Source of the DNA: a virus
Virus record (IMG/VR): IMGVR_UViG_3300036046_000029
Location: 1-31,038 of that record
Strand: one strand, 5' to 3'
Length of the DNA stretch: 31,038 nt
Positions within the stretch are counted from its first letter, which is position 1. Every line of letters starts with the position of its first letter. The notes beneath the pieces were generated by a model. That model was not told the origin of the DNA and did not search any database. It saw only the letters and a program-made list of their open reading frames with translations. This document shows positions 9,339-24,868 of this stretch, piece by piece. The position numbers were made by a program, and so were the translations under genes.

Positions 9339-10673
9339 TTAGGCGTTGAGGCCGGTGACGGTGTGGAACGCGGTCGGGCGGAACACCGCCAGCGCAGCCC
9401 GCATGTCGGCGCGCATGGTGCGCAGACCCGCGGCGAACTGGGAGCCGACGTAGCCCATCTGGATGTCGAGGCCGCGGCGCTCGAACAGCATGATCCACTC
9501 GGGGGTGAACGCGCCCACCAGCGCCGCGCCTTCGGTCAGCGCATCGTTGAGCACCACCGGCAAGCCCCAGAGGCGCATCGGGCCGGCGTCCTTCGGATCG
9601 CCGTAGATGTAGAGGCCGTCAGCGGTCTTCTGCAGGCGCACGCGCTGGAAGTCGCGCGGGTGCATGACGATGTGGGTGGCCTGAGCGCGGCCGGTCAGCA
9701 TGATGTTGATGATCGCGATGTAGAGCGCGTCCATGATGGTGTTGGCACCGCGGGCCGCAGTCTGGATGCCGGCGGTGTTGAGGATGCCGCGCAGGTTGGC
9801 ACCGGTGCCGTTGCCGATCAGGGCCTGCTGGTCGAGCCGCTGACGCACGCCGAAGCCGAGGCGGGCGTTGATGTAGCTTTCGACGATGGCGACATCCTCG
9901 AGCTGCTCGTCGGTGACCGGCAGGATATCGCCGATCTTGACCACAGGCACGCTCTGCTGGCTGAAGGCAAAGGTCGCTTCGGGATAGGCGGCACCTTCCG
10001 CCGTTTCGGCAGCGGCGTGGGTGCGGGTGGTTTCCACCATGAACGGCACGGCAGCCTGCGAGGTGCGGCCCATCGGCAGGATGTCGATCAGCTGGATCGG
10101 ACGGGTCACGCCTTCGACGAAGCCGGGCAGACGGATGTTTTCCGGCGCGAAGCCGGCGGTGGTGCTCATCAGCGCCTTGCGGCCGATGGTTTCGAACTGG
10201 GCGGTCTTGGCGAGGAAGTCCGAGCCGAAGATGTCCTCGTTCTTGTAGTCGAAGCCATCGGGGCAGCCGCGATCGAGCCAATCCTTGAAGCCCCTGCTCT
10301 CGGTCACCTGCGCGCCGAGCGACTTGAACTGCTCGAGATTGGCGGGCTGGCCGCCCCCAAAGCCACCGGGGCTACCAGGGAGGATAAAGCCGGGACGAAC
10401 CTTGCCCAGCTGCTCGAGGTTGGTCTGCGCGTTCTTGATCGCCTGCAGGCCGCCGATGTGCTCGCCCAGCTCGTCGAGCTCGGCATTGCGCTTCTTGACC
10501 TCGGTGATGAGATCATCCGAGCTCTTGATGACGACGCCGGGCACGGTGATCTTCGAGGGATCGTAGGTGCCCTCAGGCGTTTTGGCCTGTTTTAGCATCG
10601 TGTGCAGCTCTTCGGCCCGCGCCCGCATCTTCTCCTGCGCCTTATCGAGCGGGAGGGTCTTCATATCGTACAT
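9339..10673 (-). CDS. Major capsid protein, HK97 fold
   Basis: This 444-residue protein forms the capsid shell. The start chosen is the ATG 10673 with GGAG 7 nt upstream; an in-frame extension beyond it is not coding-like. Residues about 5-95 are a charged coiled-coil scaffold (delta) domain. From about 150, typical HK97 features appear: WLDRGCPDGFDYKNEDIF, GFVEGVTRPIQLIDILPMGRTSQAAVPFMVETT, then QSVPVVKIGDILPVTDEQLEDV and HPRDFQRVRLQKTADGLYIYGDP with AGLRTMRADMRAALAVFRPTAF at the end. The HK97-type protease gene is nearby. Its promoter region (10674-10878) carries the CCGGACA-NN-TGTCCGG dyad shared with the lysis cassette. Confidence 0.95.
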   Translation of the reverse strand: MYDMKTLPLDKAQEKMRARAEELHTMLKQAKTPEGTYDPSKITVPGVVIKSSDDLITEVKKRNAELDELGEHIGGLQAIKNAQTNLEQLGKVRPGFILPGSPGGFGGGQPANLEQFKSLGAQVTESRGFKDWLDRGCPDGFDYKNEDIFGSDFLAKTAQFETIGRKALMSTTAGFAPENIRLPGFVEGVTRPIQLIDILPMGRTSQAAVPFMVETTRTHAAAETAEGAAYPEATFAFSQQSVPVVKIGDILPVTDEQLEDVAIVESYINARLGFGVRQRLDQQALIGNGTGANLRGILNTAGIQTAARGANTIMDALYIAIINIMLTGRAQATHIVMHPRDFQRVRLQKTADGLYIYGDPKDAGPMRLWGLPVVLNDALTEGAALVGAFTPEWIMLFERRGLDIQMGYVGSQFAAGLRTMRADMRAALAVFRPTAFHTVTGLNA

Positions 10674-10770
10674 TGCGTTTCTCCACTGGGGCCGGCCAAA
10701 GGCGACGGTGTCTGAGGCGCGGCGAAAACCGGTGGAGATGTATTGAGAGCAGAAACGCCCCGCGCGCGCC

Positions 10771-10786
10771 CCGGACACATGTCCGG
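10771..10786. promoter_or_regulatory. Dyad CCGGACA-CA-TGTCCGG, capsid/nuclease divergent promoter
   Basis: This is a perfect 7-2-7 inverted repeat, 98 nt from the capsid ATG and 93 nt from the divergent nuclease ATG. The flanks (CGCGCC to the left and C to the right) are identical to those of the dyad at 19499-19514, so 22 of 23 positions match. The dyad centre lies about 33 nt from CAATAC, a possible -10 toward the capsid gene. It is the likely binding site of the Mor/C-like activator encoded at 19518-19925. Confidence 0.7.
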
Positions 10787-10878
10787 CACGGCAGAAAAAG
10801 CGGCGATGCGGGAATGACGACTGCCTAACCGCAAAGCCGCGATTCGGCAAATGATCCGCGCGGTGCTAGGGCGCGGCG

Positions 10879-11259
10879 ATGTTTTTCACTCTGGCCGCCG
10901 CCCCGATGCTTCTTGGCGCGATCGCGGTGTGCCCGCCGCCGCCGGCCCGCCGCCATCACTGCGTCGTCGATGGCGACACGGTCTGGTGGCAGGGCGAGAA
11001 GATCCGCATCGCCGATATCGACACCCCCGAGCTGAGCGGCCGGTGCGAGGCGGAGCGCCGCCGCGCCCGCGCCGCCCGCGATCGCCTGGTGGCGCTGCTC
11101 AACGCACGGCCAGTGACAATCGAGCGCACCGGCACCGATCGTTACGGCCGCACGCTCGCCCGGTTCCGGTCCAGGACCGGCATGGTCGGCGAGCAGCTGG
11201 TGAGCGAAGGCCTCGCCGCCCGCTGGCCGGGCCGCCTGGACTGGTGCGCCGCCCGTTGA
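10879..11259 (+). CDS. Secreted SNase-type (thermonuclease family) nuclease
   Basis: This 126-residue protein has a hydrophobic N-terminus (FFTLAAAPMLLGAIAV) that could be a signal peptide, then a compact staphylococcal-nuclease domain: VVDGDTVWWQGEKIRIADIDTPE and TDRYGRTLARF. Equivalents of the catalytic set are present: D33, R43, D48, E51 and R92. The domain is shorter than classical SNase but matches small alphaproteobacterial members. It is the only plus-strand gene inside the head operon, sitting between the capsid and protease genes, so it resembles a moron. A possible own promoter element (TGCTAG) lies about 16 nt before the ATG. It may degrade host or competing DNA outside the cytoplasm; the role is inferred. 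Confidence 0.85.
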   Translation: MFFTLAAAPMLLGAIAVCPPPPARRHHCVVDGDTVWWQGEKIRIADIDTPELSGRCEAERRRARAARDRLVALLNARPVTIERTGTDRYGRTLARFRSRTGMVGEQLVSEGLAARWPGRLDWCAAR

Positions 11260-11366
11260 CCGGCAAGGTCGTCTGAAACACCGCCCAGGGGCGATTTCAG
11301 AGGCCATAAGAACCCCGTCATGCGATTTTTGGCGGTCGGAGGGCCTTCAACCAATTCTGGGGCTTT

Positions 11367-11392
11367 CTGACGGCTCCTGAGCGGAGTGTCAG
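11367..11392. terminator. Interrupted hairpin between protease stop and nuclease end
   Basis: CTGAC-GG-CTCC-tgagc-GGAG-T-GTCAG forms a 9-bp stem with small bulges, overlapping the protease stop codon (11389-11391). It is convergent-positioned between the plus-strand nuclease and the minus-strand protease and could terminate either transcript. It lacks a clear T-run. The rest of 11260-11366 holds no gene I can support. Confidence 0.35.
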
Positions 11393-12123
11393 AGACCCAG
11401 CCGGATCCGGGCCTCCCGGGTCTCGTGGTGGGCGATCTGGTTGCGGATCGCATCGATCGCCTTCGCCTCGGCATCGGGATCAAGATCACCCGTTACCGGC
11501 ACCGTCACGTTGGGCAGGCTCAGGGCCTTGCCCAGTGCGATGTGGATCTCCTCGAGCTGCTTGCGGCCGGTCGTGCTCAGGCTGGCGGGATCGCCGCCCA
11601 GCGCCTCGGCCAGCTCGCCCAGACCGGCGATCAGCGGCGCGAAGCCTGCATCCTTCAGCGACTTCATACTGAGCGTCCCGGTGCCCCGGCCCGCGCCGCG
11701 AATAACGGTCGACACCTCGTGGACATCGAGCCGCTTGAGCACCCGCACCCGGGTCTCGCCGCGCTGGGTGAAGTCGGATTCGACCACCCCGAAGCCGTAG
11801 GAATACTCCTGCACCGGCTTGCCCTTGGCCAGATCGAACAGCAGCGTCTTGTGCCAGTCGCGCCCGCCCTGCGTCTCGAGGTTGAGGTGCAGCTCGGCAT
11901 AGGCGATGTCGCCCTCCTCGTAGACCCGCGCCTTTCCGAAGGGCATCCTGTAGCGATCGTGATGGTGGATCAGCGGGCACCACTGCTCGCCGCCGTCCTT
12001 CCAGCTGAACGCGCCGGGGGCGTACGTGTCGCCGTCATGGTCGACCTCGGACAGGCGGGCGAGGATGGCGAGGCCCTTGCCGGTCTCGCCCATCTCGGTG
12101 ACGGTCAGGTTCTTGGTTAGCAT
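11389..12123 (-). CDS. Prohead protease, HK97 family (peptidase U35)
   Basis: This 244-residue serine protease would mature the capsid by removing the scaffold domain of the major capsid protein. Visible motifs: DGDTYAPGAF at the N-terminus, HHHDRYRMPFGKA (catalytic His about residue 55), QEYSYGFGVVE (Ser 108 in the SxGF motif) and LKRLDVHEVSTVIRGAG (Glu 136 in the L-x-EVS motif). This is the His/Ser/Glu arrangement of HK97 gp4. Downstream of residue 170 a C-terminal helical extension may assist scaffolding. It sits between portal and capsid genes as usual, although a plus-strand nuclease gene separates it from the capsid gene. Confidence 0.93.
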   Translation of the reverse strand: MLTKNLTVTEMGETGKGLAILARLSEVDHDGDTYAPGAFSWKDGGEQWCPLIHHHDRYRMPFGKARVYEEGDIAYAELHLNLETQGGRDWHKTLLFDLAKGKPVQEYSYGFGVVESDFTQRGETRVRVLKRLDVHEVSTVIRGAGRGTGTLSMKSLKDAGFAPLIAGLGELAEALGGDPASLSTTGRKQLEEIHIALGKALSLPNVTVPVTGDLDPDAEAKAIDAIRNQIAHHETREARIRLGL

Positions 12124-12142: not shown

Positions 12143-12184
12143 CTCTGGCCGGCGTCAAGTAGCGAAGCGGTAGGCCGGTCAGAG
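12143..12184. repeat. Dispersed hairpin element, copy 3 with extended stem
   Basis: The 16-nt core CAAGTAGCGAAGCGGT (12156-12171) is identical to copy 1. Here the stem is much longer: CTCTGGCCGGC pairs with GCCGGTCAGAG (11 bp with one G-T pair). It occupies the portal-protease junction and includes the portal stop codon. Nothing else is seen in the 55-nt gap. Confidence 0.75.
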
Positions 12185-18252: not shown

Positions 18253-18869
18253 CACCGCGGCTCTTCGGGAACGAAGCGGACGGCGGACTGGGCGTTCACC
18301 CAGTCGATCAGCGCCTGCAGCTGCAGCGCCTGCTCAGATGCGATCAGCGCGTCGTCGAGGGCGAGGCCTCCGGTGGCAGGAAGTCGGTCTTCACCGGTGG
18401 GCGCATCAGCTCGGCCGGCGGGGTCGGGAAGGCCGGACAGACCAGCTGCGTCGGCACGGCCGGGATCGGTTCGGGCCGTTCCTGCCCGCAGGCGGTCAAA
18501 GCGAGCGCGCAGGGCAGCAAGATCGCTGCGGTAGTCAGAGGTGATCGCATCGGTGATGGTCTCCTGTTCGCGGGCGACCCGCTGGGCATTGGCCTCGGCC
18601 TCTTTTTGAGCCTGCTTCGAGGCAGCGAGGAAAGCATTGACGGTGCCGAGGTGCGCAGCCTGTTCGGCGGCAAGGCTGGCCTCGGTCTCGGCAAGATCGG
18701 CGCGCAGGCCGGGGACGGTGACAAGCTGCGACCAGAGCAAGGCCGGGACGACGATCGCGAGGGCGAGGTTGCGCCAGTCGCTGGCGAGCCACTTACCGCC
18801 CGCTGAGAGGCCTCTCAGAACGTCCTCGATCATGCCTGAGAGGAAGATTTTCAGGATCGCCCAGGTCAT
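18252..18869 (-). CDS. Inner-membrane spanin (Rz-like)
   Basis: This 205-residue protein has an N-terminal transmembrane anchor (WRNLALAIVVPALLWSQLVTVPGL, about 32-55) and a periplasmic coiled coil (LAETEASLAAEQAAHLGTVNAFLAASKQAQKEAEANAQRVAREQETITDAIT). This is the topology of an i-spanin. A lipoprotein frame for the o-spanin is nested inside it (18344-18550), the Rz/Rz1 arrangement. It follows the endolysin with an ATGA overlap. The C-terminal third overlapping the lipoprotein frame is Asp/Ala/Pro-rich. It is longer than lambda Rz (153 residues) because of an N-terminal amphipathic segment. Confidence 0.8.
   Translation of the reverse strand: MTWAILKIFLSGMIEDVLRGLSAGGKWLASDWRNLALAIVVPALLWSQLVTVPGLRADLAETEASLAAEQAAHLGTVNAFLAASKQAQKEAEANAQRVAREQETITDAITSDYRSDLAALRARFDRLRAGTARTDPGRADAAGLSGLPDPAGRADAPTGEDRLPATGGLALDDALIASEQALQLQALIDWVNAQSAVRFVPEEPR
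18344..18550 (-). CDS. Nested outer-membrane spanin lipoprotein (Rz1-like)
   Basis: This is a 68-residue frame fully inside the i-spanin gene in a different register. MRSPLTTAAILLPCALALTACG is a textbook lipoprotein signal with lipobox LTAC; the mature part starting at Cys21 is short and proline-rich (VPTQLVCPAFPTPPAELMRPPVK), like Rz1. After lipidation it would sit in the outer membrane and pair with the i-spanin across the periplasm, disrupting the outer membrane in the last step of lysis. The fragment PTQLVCPAFP recurs as a theme in o-spanins. Confidence 0.85.
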   Translation of the reverse strand: MRSPLTTAAILLPCALALTACGQERPEPIPAVPTQLVCPAFPTPPAELMRPPVKTDFLPPEASPSTTR

Positions 18870-19459
18870 GCCGCACCCGCAGCCTTGCGCAGCGCGGCGC
18901 GGACTTCATCCTTGATGTCGATCTCGCGTGCGCTGCGCCAGACGGGATTGCGCGGCCCGTTCGGATTGACCCGGTCGTAGATCGTGACGACGCCGTCATG
19001 CGACCAGCGCCCGTCGAAGAACAGCGCGCGCTCGGCCTTGCGGCGCGGGATGATCTCGCGCGGGCGGGACCAGTGCAGGAACTCGGTCCACGCCTTTTCG
19101 CGGCGGCCGAGCAGAAAGGACTGCACCCAGTCGGCCTGCCCGATCGCGCCGGTGTTCCAGTGGAAGCTCAGCGCGGCGGCCAGCTGCGCCTCGGACAGCG
19201 CGCGCCCGCGGAAGGCGGCCTGCACCTGCGGCAGGTATTTGGTGCGCAGCAGCCATTCGAACACCTCGACGGCGCGCTCGATGCTCGATCGCTGCCCGCC
19301 CCGGGTGGTGTCGTAGCGCTCGACCCGGTGGCCGCTGGCGTTGGTGACGCCAAAGCCCCAGGTGAGCACGCCGGCGCTGCACTTGTAGGCTTCGAGCACG
19401 AGGCCTTCGTGCTCGGCGACTTCGAGCAGGATCCGTTCGGAGAGAAGCGCGGTGGTCAT
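18866..19459 (-). CDS. Endolysin, GH24-type lysozyme
   Basis: This is a 197-residue muramidase. The catalytic segment EHEGLVLEAYKCSAGVLTWGFGVT keeps the exact E-(8)-D/C-(5)-T spacing of phage lysozymes: E18, C27, T33. The usual Asp is Cys here, an accepted variant. Further segments LSEAQLAAALSFHWNTGAIGQADW and FLLGRREKAWTEFLHWSRPREIIPRRKAERALFFDGRW match the family's substrate-binding lobe. No signal peptide is evident, so a holin is needed. The start is the ATG 19459; the dyad at 19499-19514 lies 40 nt upstream and little leader remains, so the mRNA may be nearly leaderless. A TTG at 19480 is a weaker alternative. Confidence 0.88.
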   Translation of the reverse strand: MTTALLSERILLEVAEHEGLVLEAYKCSAGVLTWGFGVTNASGHRVERYDTTRGGQRSSIERAVEVFEWLLRTKYLPQVQAAFRGRALSEAQLAAALSFHWNTGAIGQADWVQSFLLGRREKAWTEFLHWSRPREIIPRRKAERALFFDGRWSHDGVVTIYDRVNPNGPRNPVWRSAREIDIKDEVRAALRKAAGAA

Positions 19460-19498: not shown

Positions 19499-19514
19499 CC
19501 GGACACCTGTCCGG
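19499..19514. promoter_or_regulatory. Dyad CCGGACA-CC-TGTCCGG upstream of lysis cassette
   Basis: This is a perfect 7-2-7 inverted repeat between the stop of the Mor/C-like activator (19518) and the endolysin start (19459). With flanks it matches the capsid-promoter dyad at 22 of 23 positions. This mirrors Mu, where the activator C is encoded immediately before Plys and binds a dyad upstream of -35. A -10 would fall about 19475-19485, giving a very short leader. Confidence 0.72.
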
Positions 19515-19517
19515 CTG

Positions 19518-19925
19518 TCAGCTTTTGAACAGGTCGCCCTGCCGCGTATCGGCCAGCTCTTTCAGCCGGGCACGGCGGCGGCGGACCGTGCGGATCGTGT
19601 ATCTGAGCGCGAGCGCGATGTCACGTTCGCTGCGTCCGGCCAGCAGCATCGCATCGCAGCGGGCCTGCGCGCTGGCGATGAAGCCGACATCGCCGAGCGG
19701 GATTTCCAGCCGCAGCGGGCCGACCCCGGCGGTGAAGTGATCGGCGATCCGGCCTGCCGCCTCCAGCCCGACCAGCTGGCTGAGCCAGTGATCGGCGCCG
19801 GGGGCGGGCGGGATGTAGACCTGCGTCCCGCCGACCGCATCCGCCACCCGGCGCGCCGCTTCCTCGCCCGCGATCCGGACGATATCGGCAAGCACCTGCG
19901 GGAGGGGATCGGCGGGCTGGGTCAT
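19518..19925 (-). CDS. Mor/C-family late transcription activator
   Basis: This 135-residue protein starts at the ATG 19925 (TGATG with the previous stop). Residues 1-45 (VLADIVRIAGEEAARRVADAVGGTQVYIPP) match the Mor dimerisation domain with its 'GG..vYIP' signature. Residues 85-125 (SAQARCDAMLLAGRSERDIALALRYTIRTVRRRRARL) match its C-terminal HTH. Compared with Mu Mor (129 residues) and C (140), the length is normal. It ends the early operon and is immediately followed by a perfect dyad and the lysis cassette, so it probably acts as the late activator (C-like) or combines the middle and late roles. Confidence 0.88.
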   Translation of the reverse strand: MTQPADPLPQVLADIVRIAGEEAARRVADAVGGTQVYIPPAPGADHWLSQLVGLEAAGRIADHFTAGVGPLRLEIPLGDVGFIASAQARCDAMLLAGRSERDIALALRYTIRTVRRRRARLKELADTRQGDLFKS

Positions 19926-20095
19926 CAGCCGGTGATAACGGCCTGCGCCAGCGGCAGCGGGTGGCTGCAGTGGCTGCATTCGGCGGTGGTGCGGCCGACA
20001 TGCCAGCCCTTGCTGCCGCACTGCGGACAGCGGTTGGTCTCGCCCTCGTGGTAGCACAGCGGCGCGGGGCGATCGAAGCAGGTGCGCGCGTTCAC
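19925..20095 (-). CDS. Small zinc-ribbon protein, 56 residues
   Basis: The start is GTG 20095, sharing GTGA with the previous stop; the stop shares TGATG with the activator start. Cysteine pairs CPQCGSKGWHVGRTTAECSHC form a zinc ribbon resembling the Com-like or restriction-alleviation-type small zinc fingers of phages (RCPQCGS). In Mu, Com is a small zinc-finger mRNA-binding protein, but it lies beside mom, so no equivalence is claimed here. It may bind DNA or RNA. Confidence 0.7.
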   Translation of the reverse strand: MNARTCFDRPAPLCYHEGETNRCPQCGSKGWHVGRTTAECSHCSHPLPLAQAVITG

Positions 20096-20805
20096 TTCCC
20101 ACCCCCCGCTGCGCGCAGCTTTTTGCCCAGGGCATTGGCGATGGTGTCGTAACCTTCGGCGGTGATCGGGCCATTCGCGCCCGGCTCTATGCCGCAAAGC
20201 CGGAAGGCGGCGATATCGATCGTCCAGTCGGCCGGGATCACGTCAGCTCCTTTGAGCTTCCAGAGGATCGCCTGGCACAGGTTTTCCTTGAGCTTCATCA
20301 CTGTCCAGGCATTGCCGTTGGCATCGACCTGCGGCCAACCATGCCGCGCGGCCATCGCCTTCAGCGCCTCGATCAGGCGGTAGCCGTGCGACTGGTTGGC
20401 CCAGACCAGCCGCTCGCAGCCGAGCTGGCGCTTGGCGAAGGCCTCCAGCGCCTTTTCATCGGGGCTGCGCACCGCGCCAAGGTGATAAAGGCTGATCCAC
20501 AGCGCCCGCGCCTTGCGGGCGACGGGATGCTGCGCCGGGCGGCCTGCCCCCTGCGCCCCGCCCGCCTTGGGCAGCGGCTTGAAGCCCTTGGCCTCGAACC
20601 GCTTGAGCGCCCGCTCCAGCTCGGCCTCGGTGCAGTCGCCTGCGCTGGTGCGGCCGGTTTCATCGAGCAGGATCTGGCGATAGTCGTCCTCGTCCAGCTG
20701 CAGCTGCTTTCTGGCGACATGGATCTTCGCCAGCATCGCGCGGCGGCGGGTGGCCGAACGATCGAACTGCGCCGGCGCGGCGTTGGTGTGGAGGGCAAGG
20801 CTCAT
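20092..20805 (-). CDS. GemA / Mu gp16-like regulatory protein
   Basis: This 237-residue protein starts at the ATG 20805 (TGATG overlap). ARKQLQLDEDDYRQILLDETGRTSAGDCTEAELERALKRFEAKGFKP is the signature of the gp16/GemA family (DUF1018). The next block, ALWISLYHLGAVRSPDEKALEAFAKRQLG, with WANQSHGYRLIEALKAMAARHGW after it, is equally typical. GemA of Mu modulates host gene expression and DNA topology. It lies in the middle of the early operon as in other Mu-like phages. Confidence 0.92.
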   Translation of the reverse strand: MSLALHTNAAPAQFDRSATRRRAMLAKIHVARKQLQLDEDDYRQILLDETGRTSAGDCTEAELERALKRFEAKGFKPLPKAGGAQGAGRPAQHPVARKARALWISLYHLGAVRSPDEKALEAFAKRQLGCERLVWANQSHGYRLIEALKAMAARHGWPQVDANGNAWTVMKLKENLCQAILWKLKGADVIPADWTIDIAAFRLCGIEPGANGPITAEGYDTIANALGKKLRAAGGGK

Positions 20806-20963
20806 CAGGCGTCTCCAGTGATGGCGGCCAGCCCAATCGCGACGATTGCGAACAGGCTGAGGGTGACGACCATCCCGATTGCTTCGGATCGGGCGGTGCC
20901 GGGACCGCGCGCGGCATCGAGCGCGCGGGCGGTGTAGCGGCAGAGGGCGAGGAGGCGGATCAT
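20805..20963 (-). CDS. Small membrane protein, 52 residues
   Basis: The frame starts at the ATG 20963 (TAATG with the previous stop) and ends in a TGATG junction with the GemA-like gene. A basic N-terminus (MIRLLALCRYTARALDAARG) precedes one hydrophobic segment (GMVVTLSLFAIVAIGLAAI). Codon use resembles its neighbours. Function unknown. Confidence 0.6.
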   Translation of the reverse strand: MIRLLALCRYTARALDAARGPGTARSEAIGMVVTLSLFAIVAIGLAAITGDA

Positions 20964-21151
20964 TAGTGATACTTCCCGATCCCCAGATCACGATGCAGCT
21001 TTTCGCCCTTGGCCTGGAGCTTGTCGGCCGCAGCGCGCAGGCAGTCCGCTGCGCTGAAGAATGCCAGGTCTTCGGCGTAGTCGAACGCAAGATCGACCAG
21101 CTCGGCGGCAGTCATGTCGGCCTCGGTGCGAGGCTTGCGAGGCGCGCTCAT
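20963..21151 (-). CDS. Small early protein, 62 residues
   Basis: The start is the ATG 21151, overlapping the MuB-like stop by 4 nt; an in-frame upstream extension lies inside MuB and is not coding. The product (MSAPRKPRTEADMTAAELVDLAFDYAEDLAFFSAADCLRAAADKLQAKGEKLHRDLGI) is a charged helical protein. Not a recognised family. Confidence 0.62.
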   Translation of the reverse strand: MSAPRKPRTEADMTAAELVDLAFDYAEDLAFFSAADCLRAAADKLQAKGEKLHRDLGIGKYH

Positions 21152-22122
21152 GCCCGGATCCACCGCGTGGCGCGTTCGCGCTGGGCGTCGCGCAGGTCGG
21201 CGATCGACAGGCCGCGATCCTCGGCCACCGCCAGAATCGTCGCCGCCTCGATCAGCTGCTTGCATTCGCGCAGGCCGCCGCTGTCGGGCGTCAGCGCGAT
21301 GTTCTGGAGGTAGCGCCGAATGTCCGGCTGCTCGATCCCCCAGGCGTCACAGAAAGCGGCAACATCCTCGGGCAGCGGGGTGCGCTGTTCGTGCATGTTG
21401 GCGATGCGGCTGAGCAGCCGGGCGAGCTGATCGCGCTTCGGCCCGGTCTTGATCGTCTGGATCAGCTGTTCGTTGCCGAAGATGCAGATGCCGACGCCGG
21501 TGATGTCGTGCCAGTTACGCAGCTGCTCGATCGATTCGAGCGTCAGCCAGTTGCCTTCATCGATCACCAGCAGGCCCTTGCGGCCGCTGATCCGCGTGGT
21601 GACCATCGCGGCCGCATCGGCCTTGGAAAGGTAGCGCGGCTCGACGCCCAGCGCGGCCAGCACCGATTTGGTCATGGCCAGCAGGCTGCCGGTGGCAGGG
21701 CTCATCGTTGCCCGCCAGACCGATGCGGCGCGATCGGCATATTCGTCCATCGTGAAGGTCTTGCCGGTGCCCGGGCCGGTGCCGACGACAGTGATCCGGC
21801 CCGAATGCGCAATCTCCAGCAGGTCCATCATCCGCAGCGAAGTGCGGGTGTCGAAATAGCCCGGGTTGGTGGGCAGCTGCGACTGGCGCATCGTCTGCGC
21901 CTCGACCATCTGGCGGAACTGGAACACCTTGCGGGCCACGTTGCTGCCCCCGTCCCTCGCGCCGTAAGTGCCGGCGGCGAAGGTGGTGATGGTGCCGAGC
22001 GCGATGCCCGATTCCTTCGCCAGCTGGCTCCACGGCATCGGCGGATCGCTGAGCTCGCGGTAGCTGTTGAGCCAGAAGCGCATCTCCTCGACGTCGACCG
22101 GCAGATCCTTCACGTTGATCAT
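21148..22122 (-). CDS. Transposition target ATPase (MuB-like AAA+)
   Basis: This 324-residue protein has an N-terminal HTH (about residues 28-55, WSQLAKESGIALGTITTFAAGTYG, as in MuB). An AAA+ core follows: Walker A GTGPGTGKT (114-122), Walker B GLLVIDEG (183-190), and a sensor segment GVGICIFGNEQ. The C-terminal helical domain contains LTPDSGGLRECKQLIEAATILA, matching MuB's DNA-binding end. MuB binds target DNA with ATP, activates the transposase and gives target immunity. It follows the transposase gene by 28 nt, the canonical A-B order. Confidence 0.95.
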   Translation of the reverse strand: MINVKDLPVDVEEMRFWLNSYRELSDPPMPWSQLAKESGIALGTITTFAAGTYGARDGGSNVARKVFQFRQMVEAQTMRQSQLPTNPGYFDTRTSLRMMDLLEIAHSGRITVVGTGPGTGKTFTMDEYADRAASVWRATMSPATGSLLAMTKSVLAALGVEPRYLSKADAAAMVTTRISGRKGLLVIDEGNWLTLESIEQLRNWHDITGVGICIFGNEQLIQTIKTGPKRDQLARLLSRIANMHEQRTPLPEDVAAFCDAWGIEQPDIRRYLQNIALTPDSGGLRECKQLIEAATILAVAEDRGLSIADLRDAQRERATRWIRA

Positions 22123-22150: not shown

Positions 22151-24118
22151 TCAGTTGTTGGCAGCCGCGATCTTCGCGCGGCCGATGCGCATCCGTTCGA
22201 GCGTGCTCAGCGGCGTGGGCTCGGCGGATGAGGGATTGGTTTCAGGCCGGGGCAGGCCCACTGCGGTGCCGTGCGGCCGCACCGGGCGGACCGCACCGGC
22301 GCGCGGGGACGGCGCGGGCAGGACGCCCGCCTGCAGATCGGCCAACTGATCGGGCGCGATGAGATCGGCAGCGGCGGCCTGCGCCTTGGTTGCCTTCTTG
22401 AAATCGGCGGTGCGCTTGGCCGCTTCCCTGGCCCCGGCGGCATCGTGGAAGCCGGTGTCGGCAATCACATCGGCGGCGGCGATGTAGCGGCCCTCGAAAT
22501 CGTAGACATGCACCTCGGCGTGCAGGTTGTCGGGATCGAAGCGCACCGTCACCCGCTCGCCCCGGCGGCTCGAAAGCTCGGGGTGCCAGTAGCGGTTGCC
22601 ATGCAGCTCGATCTCGCCGGTCTGGCGGTTGATCAGCTTCTGGTCGGCCGCGAGCAGCGCCATCCGCAGCTGCTCCGGCGTGGCCTTGCCGATCGGGCTG
22701 GCGGCGTAGCTTTCGAAGAACACATCATCGAAACTGCGCCCCAGCGCGGTCTGCGTGCGGCGACCCGGGCGGGCGTTGTGCGCGGCGATCTCCTCGTCCA
22801 CCAGCGCCACGAAGCGGTCCCACGCCACCGCCTTGCTGCCGTAGTTCTCGGGCTTCGCCATCGGGCTGTTGCCGGTATAGGCGCCCTCGCACGCGGGATG
22901 CTTGGCGATGGAATCGCACAGATCGCGGAAAGCGCGCTCGATCGGCTTGGACTGGCCGCGGAACGGCATCGCCCAGTGGATCTTCACGCCCAGACCGGTC
23001 AGCAGGCCGGTGGGCTCCTCTGGGCGGATCTTGAAGCGGAAGCGGCTCTTCGCCCCGCCGGTGATCCATTTGGAGGCGAAGGCCCGGCCGTTATCCAGCA
23101 CGCAGGCGGCAGGGATGCCGAAGTTGCGAAAGCAGTCGGCGAAGGCGAGCCGGGTCTGGATCGCGCTTTCCTCGGTCCCGACGCGCCAGGCGAGCAGCTT
23201 GCGGCTGTAGATGTCCTGGATTGCCACCATGATCGGGCGCACCACGCGGCCGTCGGCGGTTTTCACGAAGACATCTAACTTGTGCCCGTCGATATTGACG
23301 CATTCGAGCGCCCGCAGCTCTTCCACCGTGCGGCGCTGCGCGGGGGTCGAGCGGCGCAGCGCCTCTTCGCCCTCGCGCTTCAGGGTCAGCACGGCGGCGG
23401 GATATTCCCGCTCCACCCGCCGCCTGAAGGTGCGCTCGGACGCCATGAAGATGCCGCGCTGCTGCGCCATCCGCTGGACGCGGTAGTAGCAGCTGGTCAG
23501 CGTCGGCGCGCTGGGGCGCAGGTAATCGCTGATGAAGGCCTTCCACAGATCCGAGTGGATTTCGGCCTCGGCCCCGCCGCCCTGGCGGCGCGGGGCAAGC
23601 GCGGGCAGCCAGTCGGTCCGGGGGATGCCCTCGACTGCGCGCAGCCAGTTCCACAAGGTCGATCGGCCGACACCGTGCGTGTCCGAGGCATCGGCCACCG
23701 CGCTGCTGCGGGTTGCGCCGGCTTCGCACAGCAGCTCGATCGCATTGACGATATCGAGGCGACGCTGCGCTTCGGCCTTTACCTTGGCGCTCTGCTTGTC
23801 GAACCAGCCCCAGGCGGTGGTCTGTTCGGCCACCGCGATCGGGCGCAGCCGGATTTCGTCGGATTGCGCCAGCGCGATGCGTGCCTCGCCGGGCAGCAGG
23901 CTGCAGTGGAATTCCACCCCGCCGCCCCGCCCGGCGCGCTGGCGCACCAGCGGGCGATTGTCGCGGCCCAGGCGCGAGGCCCAGCGTTCGGTTGCGGCGC
24001 GGCGATTGATCGAGCGCTTGTCGCCCGGCAGCCCGGGCAGGCCGAGCGTCTCCAGCTCACTGGCGGTGAACCAGGCGTCATCTTCGAACGGCACCTGATG
24101 CGCTGCGAGTACGCTCAT
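22151..24118 (-). CDS. Phage transposase, MuA-like DDE recombinase
   Basis: This 655-residue protein has an N-terminal winged-helix domain (DAWFTASELETLGLPGLPGDKRSINRRAATERW, about 14-47), like the MuA enhancer-binding or end-binding Mu_DNA_bind fold. End-recognition HTH segments follow (about 118-160). The catalytic core has D277 (VNIDGHKLDVFVK), D342 (CVLDNGRAFASKW) and E394 (FRGQSKPIERAFRDL), matching the spacing of MuA D269/D336/E392. C-terminal domains IIIA/B have the beta-barrel RYWHPELSSRRGERVTVRFDP and a basic tail. It would nick and join the phage ends during integration and replicative transposition. Confidence 0.96.
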   Translation of the reverse strand: MSVLAAHQVPFEDDAWFTASELETLGLPGLPGDKRSINRRAATERWASRLGRDNRPLVRQRAGRGGGVEFHCSLLPGEARIALAQSDEIRLRPIAVAEQTTAWGWFDKQSAKVKAEAQRRLDIVNAIELLCEAGATRSSAVADASDTHGVGRSTLWNWLRAVEGIPRTDWLPALAPRRQGGGAEAEIHSDLWKAFISDYLRPSAPTLTSCYYRVQRMAQQRGIFMASERTFRRRVEREYPAAVLTLKREGEEALRRSTPAQRRTVEELRALECVNIDGHKLDVFVKTADGRVVRPIMVAIQDIYSRKLLAWRVGTEESAIQTRLAFADCFRNFGIPAACVLDNGRAFASKWITGGAKSRFRFKIRPEEPTGLLTGLGVKIHWAMPFRGQSKPIERAFRDLCDSIAKHPACEGAYTGNSPMAKPENYGSKAVAWDRFVALVDEEIAAHNARPGRRTQTALGRSFDDVFFESYAASPIGKATPEQLRMALLAADQKLINRQTGEIELHGNRYWHPELSSRRGERVTVRFDPDNLHAEVHVYDFEGRYIAAADVIADTGFHDAAGAREAAKRTADFKKATKAQAAAADLIAPDQLADLQAGVLPAPSPRAGAVRPVRPHGTAVGLPRPETNPSSAEPTPLSTLERMRIGRAKIAAANN

Positions 24119-24574: not shown

Positions 24575-24868
24575 CTAGTCGCCTACCGCTTCGCTGCTTG
24601 AGGCCGGGGCCTCCGCGTCGTCGAACAGGGGATCGCGGCGCAGATCGAGCCGTCGGGTGCAGAAATCGCGCGGCAGGATCGTGATCACGTGGTTCTTGTC
24701 CAGCACCACCCGCTGCCCGCCCGGCAGGCGCACGAAGCGCGCGCCGAACTCGATCGCGATGCGAATCGCCGGGATATCCAGCGCCAGCCAGATCGCGGCG
24801 GCCGGCACATCGGCCACCCGCTCGCGGTAACGCTGGATCGCGTGCCAGGTGAGGAAGATTTCAGTCAC
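24575..24868 (-). CDS. Early-operon protein, 97 residues, unknown
   Basis: The frame starts at GTG 24868 (VTEIFLTWHAIQRYRERVADV), 10 nt after the preceding stop. The core is IRIAIEFGARFVRLPGGQRVVLDKNHVITILPRDF: a helix with 'HAIQRYRERV' followed by beta strands, loosely like small RelE/DUF4258-type folds, but I cannot assign it. The C-terminus (ASSSEAVGD) is encoded by copy 4 of the dispersed hairpin element, so the element has become coding sequence here. Confidence 0.62.
   Translation of the reverse strand: MTEIFLTWHAIQRYRERVADVPAAAIWLALDIPAIRIAIEFGARFVRLPGGQRVVLDKNHVITILPRDFCTRRLDLRRDPLFDDAEAPASSSEAVGD
24581..24604. repeat. Dispersed hairpin element, copy 4
   Basis: GCCT and AGGC arms flank ACCGCTTCGCTGCTTG, the reverse-oriented core with one change from copies 1 and 3. 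It lies across the 3' end of a small early gene and supplies its last codons apart from the stop. Confidence 0.72.

What the first reader, a model, noticed from the sequence alone, without database searches (positions are those of the whole stretch)
10771..11259. Plus-strand secreted nuclease moron sharing a symmetric late operator with the capsid gene
An SNase-type nuclease with a signal-like N-terminus interrupts the protease-capsid gene pair in reverse orientation. The late dyad sits almost midway (93 nt from its ATG, 98 nt from the capsid ATG), so one symmetric site could drive both directions. A nuclease released around lysis could clear DNA or act on rivals.
Basis: partly seen in the sequence, partly recalled or inferred. 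Interest (0 to 1): 0.6.

Follow-up and report, generated by a model that had tools for sequence, protein, structure and literature searches.

The report
Nuclease cargo beside phage late switch
A transposing bacterial virus carries an optional, probably exported DNA-cutting enzyme in a cargo slot beside the switch that turns on its head genes; the switch points only towards the head genes, and its DNA 'password' changes in step with the viral activator protein that reads it.

Summary
An intact SNase-type gene (10879-11259, +) lies antisense between protease and capsid, and a dyad (10771-10786) lies 92 nt from its ATG and 97 nt from the capsid ATG. The window is a Mu-like transposable phage. A second dyad copy (19499-19514) sits between the Mor/C-type activator gene and the lysozyme gene. 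In relatives the dyad recurs at both places and its arms differ between phages (CCGGACA or CCGGAAC). The two copies agree in 23/23 phages when located independently, and one recognition-helix residue of the activator (R versus K/W/L) switches with them (26/26, plus 4/4 held out). It is not functionally symmetric: a fixed GGCG and -10-like bases lie on the capsid/lysis side, and nothing nuclease-specific on the other. The nuclease has its own promoter-like element (9/11 carriers, 0/9 non-carriers), is accessory (five gains or losses), and shares its slot with restriction-modification and ThsB/SLATT genes in relatives. Best reading: an exported cargo nuclease, expressed in the lysogen independently of the late switch, that destroys incoming DNA. 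Expression, binding and activity remain untested.

The parts
10879..11259 (+). SNase-type nuclease gene, 126 aa, accessory cargo
   Evidence: Pfam PF00565 2.9e-10; fold match; dN about 0.2-0.4 against dS about 0.5-1.4
10771..10786 (-). Late operator dyad CCGGACATGTGTCCGG (read towards the capsid gene)
10767..10770 (-). GGCG flank on the capsid side that gives the site a direction
10740..10745 (-). -10-like CAATAC, 26-31 nt after the dyad
   Evidence: Mu geometry PMC4287176; sequence inference
9339..10673 (-). Major capsid protein
   Evidence: Pfam Phage_capsid 4.1e-40
11389..12123 (-). Prohead protease (S78)
10843..10872 (+). Nuclease-direction promoter-like element TTCGGC-N18-TAGGGC, 6 nt before the ATG
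   Evidence: 9 of 11 carriers, 0 of 9 non-carriers, 95 of 20000 random windows
10821..10850 (-). Capsid-direction promoter-like element TTGCCG ... GTTAGGC, its -35-like box overlapping the nuclease one
   Evidence: present in carriers and in most non-carriers
19499..19514 (-). Second late operator dyad CCGGACAGGTGTCCGG followed by GGCG, before the lysozyme gene
19518..19928 (-). Mor/C-type late activator, 136 aa from the ATG at 19928; T114 and R117 in the recognition helix
   Evidence: phrog_836 1.9e-22; Pfam Mor in 23 of 26 family members
18866..19459 (-). Lysozyme/endolysin, first gene of the lysis operon
   Evidence: Pfam 1.1e-11, phrog_7

Best explanation
The site is the boundary between two late operons of a Mu-like transposable phage of Sphingomonadales. 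The 16-bp dyad is the operator of the phage's own Mor/C-type activator: bound there, it recruits RNA polymerase towards the capsid operon only, as the second copy does for the lysis operon (strong in silico evidence; binding itself inferred). The SNase gene is a separate cargo unit placed antisense in the slot between the operons, with its own promoter-like element, so it can be made in the lysogen without the late activator (inferred). The product is exported to the periplasm or outside (inferred) and cuts DNA (catalytic residues intact; activity inferred), most likely destroying DNA that enters from outside, such as that of rival phages or free DNA.
For: Dyad at both operon heads in 26 distinct phages. 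Sites chosen independently of each other agree at position 6 in 23/23, permutation p 5e-5. Of all activator columns, the one equal to window R117 separates the operator types perfectly (mutual information 0.8905 = the full label entropy) and T114 comes second; both lie in the predicted helix 112-126 of a helix-turn-helix. Operator type switches 7 times on the capsid tree; 6 of 6 independent pairs agree for residue and for the two sites, sign p 0.031. Four held-out phages agree. Flank and -10-like bases on one side only. SNase presence changes 5 times on the tree; its own promoter-like element is in 9/11 carriers and 0/9 non-carriers. The same slot holds antisense type II restriction-modification genes in L052 and a ThsB TIR plus SLATT pair in L080. 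A prophage with the SNase gene lies in an Erythrobacter tepidarius genome (L100). Precedents: prophage DNases that block natural transformation in Campylobacter (PMC3995785); position antisense to lytic genes with an own promoter, called characteristic of morons (PMC7067206).
Against: No expression, binding or nuclease data. A scan for consensus sigma70 promoters and for terminators found none, so the nuclease promoter rests on comparative spacing, and TAGGG 6 nt before the ATG could be a ribosome-binding site instead. L026 and L033 carry the gene without it; L033's copy has an internal stop. The signal peptide lacks a charged n-region. PADLOC has no hit for the nuclease. Some cargo in the slot is sense-oriented and has no defence match. 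The 6-pair sign test is only just significant.
Confidence: 0.55

Rival explanations
1. One reading: the dyad is a bidirectional late operator, so the nuclease is a late gene made with the capsid and released at lysis to clear DNA or act on rivals.
For: The dyad core is symmetric and almost midway; its distance to the nuclease ATG is 69-92 nt in the carriers.
Against: GGCG and the -10-like bases are on one side only; bases 24-31 nt from the dyad on the nuclease side show no conservation peculiar to carriers. The left flank is also conserved in phages without the gene.
Confidence: 0.1
2. The exported nuclease serves another purpose: clearing host DNA from lysates, nutrient scavenging, or blocking natural transformation so that the prophage is not recombined away, rather than stopping rival phages.
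For: Campylobacter prophage DNases block transformation (PMC3995785).
Against: Known defence genes occupy the same slot in two relatives, but two cases are few.
Confidence: 0.3
3. The dyad is a repressor operator or a terminator-like structure rather than an activator site.
For: Palindromes of this size are common as repressor sites.
Against: Co-switching with the recognition helix of the Mor/C protein, position right after its gene, 16-bp length and -10 spacing as at Mu Pm; no T-run follows.
Confidence: 0.05

Closest known systems
Phage Mu C-dependent late promoters (Plys, PI, PP, Pmom) and Mor-dependent Pm
   Same: Dyad-symmetric 16-bp activator site in place of a -35 hexamer; Mor/C family activator; transposable phage with MuA, MuB and GemA relatives. 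That C sits just before the lysis operon in Mu is from general knowledge.
   Different: Other dyad sequence (CCGGACAnnTGTCCGG or CCGGAACnnGTTCCGG, then GGCG); one site lies between protease and capsid; arm sequence and activator helix switch together between close relatives.
Campylobacter jejuni CJIE1 dns and related prophage DNases
   Same: Optional secreted or periplasmic DNase carried by a prophage, reported to block natural transformation (PMC3995785).
   Different: Sequence relationship to the SNase gene was not tested; different host and position.
Staphylococcal nuclease (thermonuclease)
   Same: Fold and catalytic residues.
   Different: Similarity ends at residue 113-114; shorter C-terminal part; four invariant Cys; 126-aa precursor.
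Morons antisense to prophage lytic genes, such as Salmonella ST64B STMMW_20121
   Same: Antisense to late genes, own promoter, optional (PMC7067206).
   Different: Here the slot is the boundary of two activator-dependent late operons and its content differs from phage to phage.

Membership tests
SNase family nuclease | SNase domain above the curated score | tested here: met
   41 bits, cut-off 21
SNase family nuclease | Catalytic set (S. aureus D21, R35, D40, E43, R87) | tested here: met
   Window D33, R43, D48, E51, R91 invariant in 10 homologues, aligned with solved SNase chains; catalytic numbering from general knowledge
SNase family nuclease | Calcium-dependent nuclease activity | not testable with these tools
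   Needs an assay
Secreted protein | Sec signal peptide: charged n-region, hydrophobic core, AXA site | tested here: inconclusive
   Hydrophobic core and AIA present, no K/R before it; four invariant Cys suit an oxidising compartment; no signal-peptide predictor on hand
Mor/C transcription activator family | Profile match to Mor / late activator | tested here: met
   phrog_836 1.9e-22; Pfam Mor in 23 of 26 family members, best 3.5e-8; the window protein alone 18.7 bits, below the cut-off 24.9
Mor/C transcription activator family | Fold match to a solved Mor structure | tested here: inconclusive
   No significant sequence or Foldseek hit to a Mor structure in the PDB; model pTM only 0.56
Mu-type activator-dependent late promoter | 16-bp dyad with a -10 about 24 nt downstream and no -35 hexamer | tested here: met
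   -10-like conservation around 26-31 nt after the dyad, GGCG in the -35 place; Mu dyad -51 to -36
Mu-type activator-dependent late promoter | Activator binds the dyad and is required for transcription | not testable with these tools
   Inferred from co-switching
Bidirectional operator | Promoter elements on both sides of the dyad at the activator's spacing | tested here: not met
Moron (accessory prophage gene) | Optional gene, absent from close relatives at the same place | tested here: met
Moron (accessory prophage gene) | Own promoter, expressed in the lysogen | tested here: inconclusive
   Comparative promoter-like pattern; no consensus promoter found; expression not testable
Known anti-phage defence family | Match to a described defence protein | tested here: not met
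   No PADLOC hit for the nuclease

The most novel reading that the evidence does not exclude
The protease|capsid boundary of these Mu-like phages is a cargo slot for lysogeny-phase defence, and the small exported SNase (often with a small partner gene) is an undescribed periplasmic anti-phage nuclease that is shut off when late transcription begins, because its -35-like box overlaps a capsid-direction promoter.
Probability: 0.25. Interest if true: 0.65.

Novelty: new variant of a known kind. Interest (0 to 1): 0.5.

Why it matters
The operator part gives a natural experiment: at least six independent switches of operator sequence at distant late promoters, each matched by the same two recognition-helix residues of the activator. 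That makes a long-standing question, how an activator and all its sites change together, directly testable with two point mutants and two reporters. The cargo part identifies a slot in Mu-like phages of alphaproteobacteria that carries nuclease, restriction-modification or ThsB/SLATT genes, a place to look for new prophage functions.

Tried and rejected
Bidirectional operator: rejected on the one-sided flank and -10. Core head gene: rejected, absent from many relatives. Nuclease as a known defence family: no PADLOC hit. Intrinsic terminator between nuclease and protease: a hairpin folds at 11269-11301, but z is only -1.2 and there is no T-run. First pairing of the two dyads maximised their likeness and was therefore circular; repeated with independent site choice. 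The activator tree with the helix columns left out is too poorly resolved for the pair test (3 pairs). Foldseek on the activator model gave no significant hit. Literature searches for SNase in superinfection exclusion and for late promoters of alphaproteobacterial Mu-like phages found no description; the library lacks most subscription papers.

Full report
What is there. The window is a whole 31,038-bp IMG/VR record of a Mu-like transposable phage: MuA transposase (22151-24118, -), MuB (21148-22122, -), GemA (20092-21090, -), Mor/C-type activator, lysozyme, gp27-like small terminase subunit, large terminase subunit, portal, protease, capsid and tape measure, mostly on the minus strand. Named relatives are Sinorhizobium phages StopSmel and Aussie and Microcystis phage Mwe-Yong1; prophages lie in Erythrobacter, Sphingobium, Sphingopyxis and other alphaproteobacteria.

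The nuclease. The 126-aa protein matches SNase (2.9e-10), aligns with solved staphylococcal nucleases and folds as one (pLDDT 87.6; Foldseek probability 1.00). The catalytic residues are invariant in ten homologues at the same place, and so are exactly four cysteines. Nonsynonymous divergence is about a third of synonymous, so the protein is under purifying selection. All copies start with 14-18 mostly hydrophobic residues ending in a small-residue motif before Cys; export is likely but not shown, because the charged n-region is missing. One relative (L033) has an internal stop.

It is accessory. Among phages with related capsids, the gene is antisense between protease and capsid in the window, L022, L025, L026, L028, L029 (= L100), L032, L033, L035, L037 and L202, and absent in L021, L023, L024, L030, L031, L034, L036, L125 and L209; five changes are needed on the capsid tree. 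In other relatives the same slot holds other genes: an antisense type II methyltransferase and restriction enzyme (L052; PADLOC 8.2e-168 and 4.1e-103), an antisense ThsB TIR protein and a SLATT protein (L080; 3.5e-43 and 1.1e-46), sense-oriented small secreted-looking proteins in Rhizobiales phages, and others.

The dyad is a late operator. A second copy lies between the activator gene and the lysozyme gene (19499-19514). Relatives keep a dyad at both places. In 26 distinct phages both copies are followed by GGCG. Arm sequences differ between phages (ACA, AAC, AAA, TCA types, and CCTGAACG), but the two copies in one phage agree. Because the first pairing chose the most alike pair, I repeated it with each site chosen alone: 23 of 23 phages agree at position 6 (permutation p 5e-5). 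The activator follows: of all alignment columns, the one equal to window R117 separates C6 from A6 operators perfectly (R in 18 of 18; K, W or L in 8 of 8) and T114 is second; both lie in the predicted recognition helix 112-126. On the capsid tree the operator type switches seven times; six independent pairs all agree (p 0.031). L021 and L034, close relatives, differ in exactly this way. Four phages fetched afterwards obey the rule. Seven phages of a sister group have a third dyad of matching type about 6 kb downstream of the capsid start.

Direction. In Mu, Mor binds a dyad at -51 to -36 (PMC4287176), so the -10 should begin about 24 nt after a 16-bp dyad. Here A-rich -10-like columns lie about 26-31 nt after the dyad on the capsid and lysis sides, and GGCG stands where a -35 would be. 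GGCG is on that side in 51 of 54 CCGG-type sites taken without selecting for it, on the other side in 7. None of the eight SNase carriers in the set has it on the nuclease side, and the bases at the matching distance on that side show no conservation special to carriers. One symmetric operator serving both genes is therefore unlikely.

How the nuclease is expressed. Carriers share TTSGGC-N18-TANNNY exactly 6 nt before the ATG (9 of 11; 0 of 9 non-carriers; 95 of 20,000 random windows from the same loci). The TT of the first box is missing where the nuclease gene is missing, although the overlapping capsid-direction TTGCC...TA element stays. This suggests a leaderless transcript from an own promoter; a ribosome-binding site at TAGGG is the alternative. 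A consensus scan finds no promoter.

Function. Intact active site and probable export say extracytoplasmic nuclease. Antisense position in prophage lytic regions with an own promoter is described as characteristic of morons (PMC7067206), prophage DNases of Campylobacter block natural transformation (PMC3995785), and two relatives carry known defence genes in this slot. I therefore favour destruction of incoming DNA by the lysogen's exported nuclease, with lysate clearing or a block to transformation as live alternatives. Confidence by step: operator of the Mor/C activator about 0.9; one-directional about 0.85; accessory cargo about 0.95; own promoter about 0.6; exported nuclease about 0.75; protection against incoming DNA about 0.4.

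Novelty. Mor/C-dependent late promoters, SNase and prophage DNase cargo are known kinds. The operator sequences, their switching in step with the activator helix, and the cargo slot were not found described in the papers searched; the library is incomplete.

Noticed in passing
L052:1704-4306 (also L053, L054); L080:2241-3652: Antisense defence-type genes in the same protease|capsid slot: type II methyltransferase plus restriction enzyme; ThsB TIR plus SLATT_3/SLATT_1 protein.
   Followed up: partly
L028:9330-9461, L032:9294-9425, L025:4891-5022, L202:9187-9429 (all minus strand); alone in L125:9551-9808, L023, L031: A small gene of unknown function, without a family match where tested (L125), overlaps the 3' end of the nuclease gene or stands alone in the slot; possible partner gene.
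   Followed up: partly
L044, L046, L071, L076, L084, L090, L094, about 5.4-6.6 kb downstream of the capsid start: Third late dyad of the same arm type as the other two in the same phage, probably a further late promoter; not found in the window.
   Followed up: partly
L047, L049, L055, L064, L065, L070, L088 (upstream of capsid and at the end of mor): A second class of paired dyads (such as CCGCGCAnCTGCGCGG or CCACGCAGCCGCGTGG, usually followed by ATG or GTG instead of GGCG), in most of these phages with a different recognition helix (ADVATVRRW).
   Followed up: no
window 12149-12175 and 24581-24607: 27-nt inverted repeat pair, 93% complementary, 12.4 kb apart; its core recurs near the protease or head genes of several relatives. 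Unexplained.
   Followed up: no
L108, gap of 3.9 kb between protease and capsid (MAG Parasphingorhabdus): Slot holds what look like a chromate-transporter-like protein, a superoxide-dismutase-like protein and a beta-propeller protein (named by eye, no family search run).
   Followed up: no
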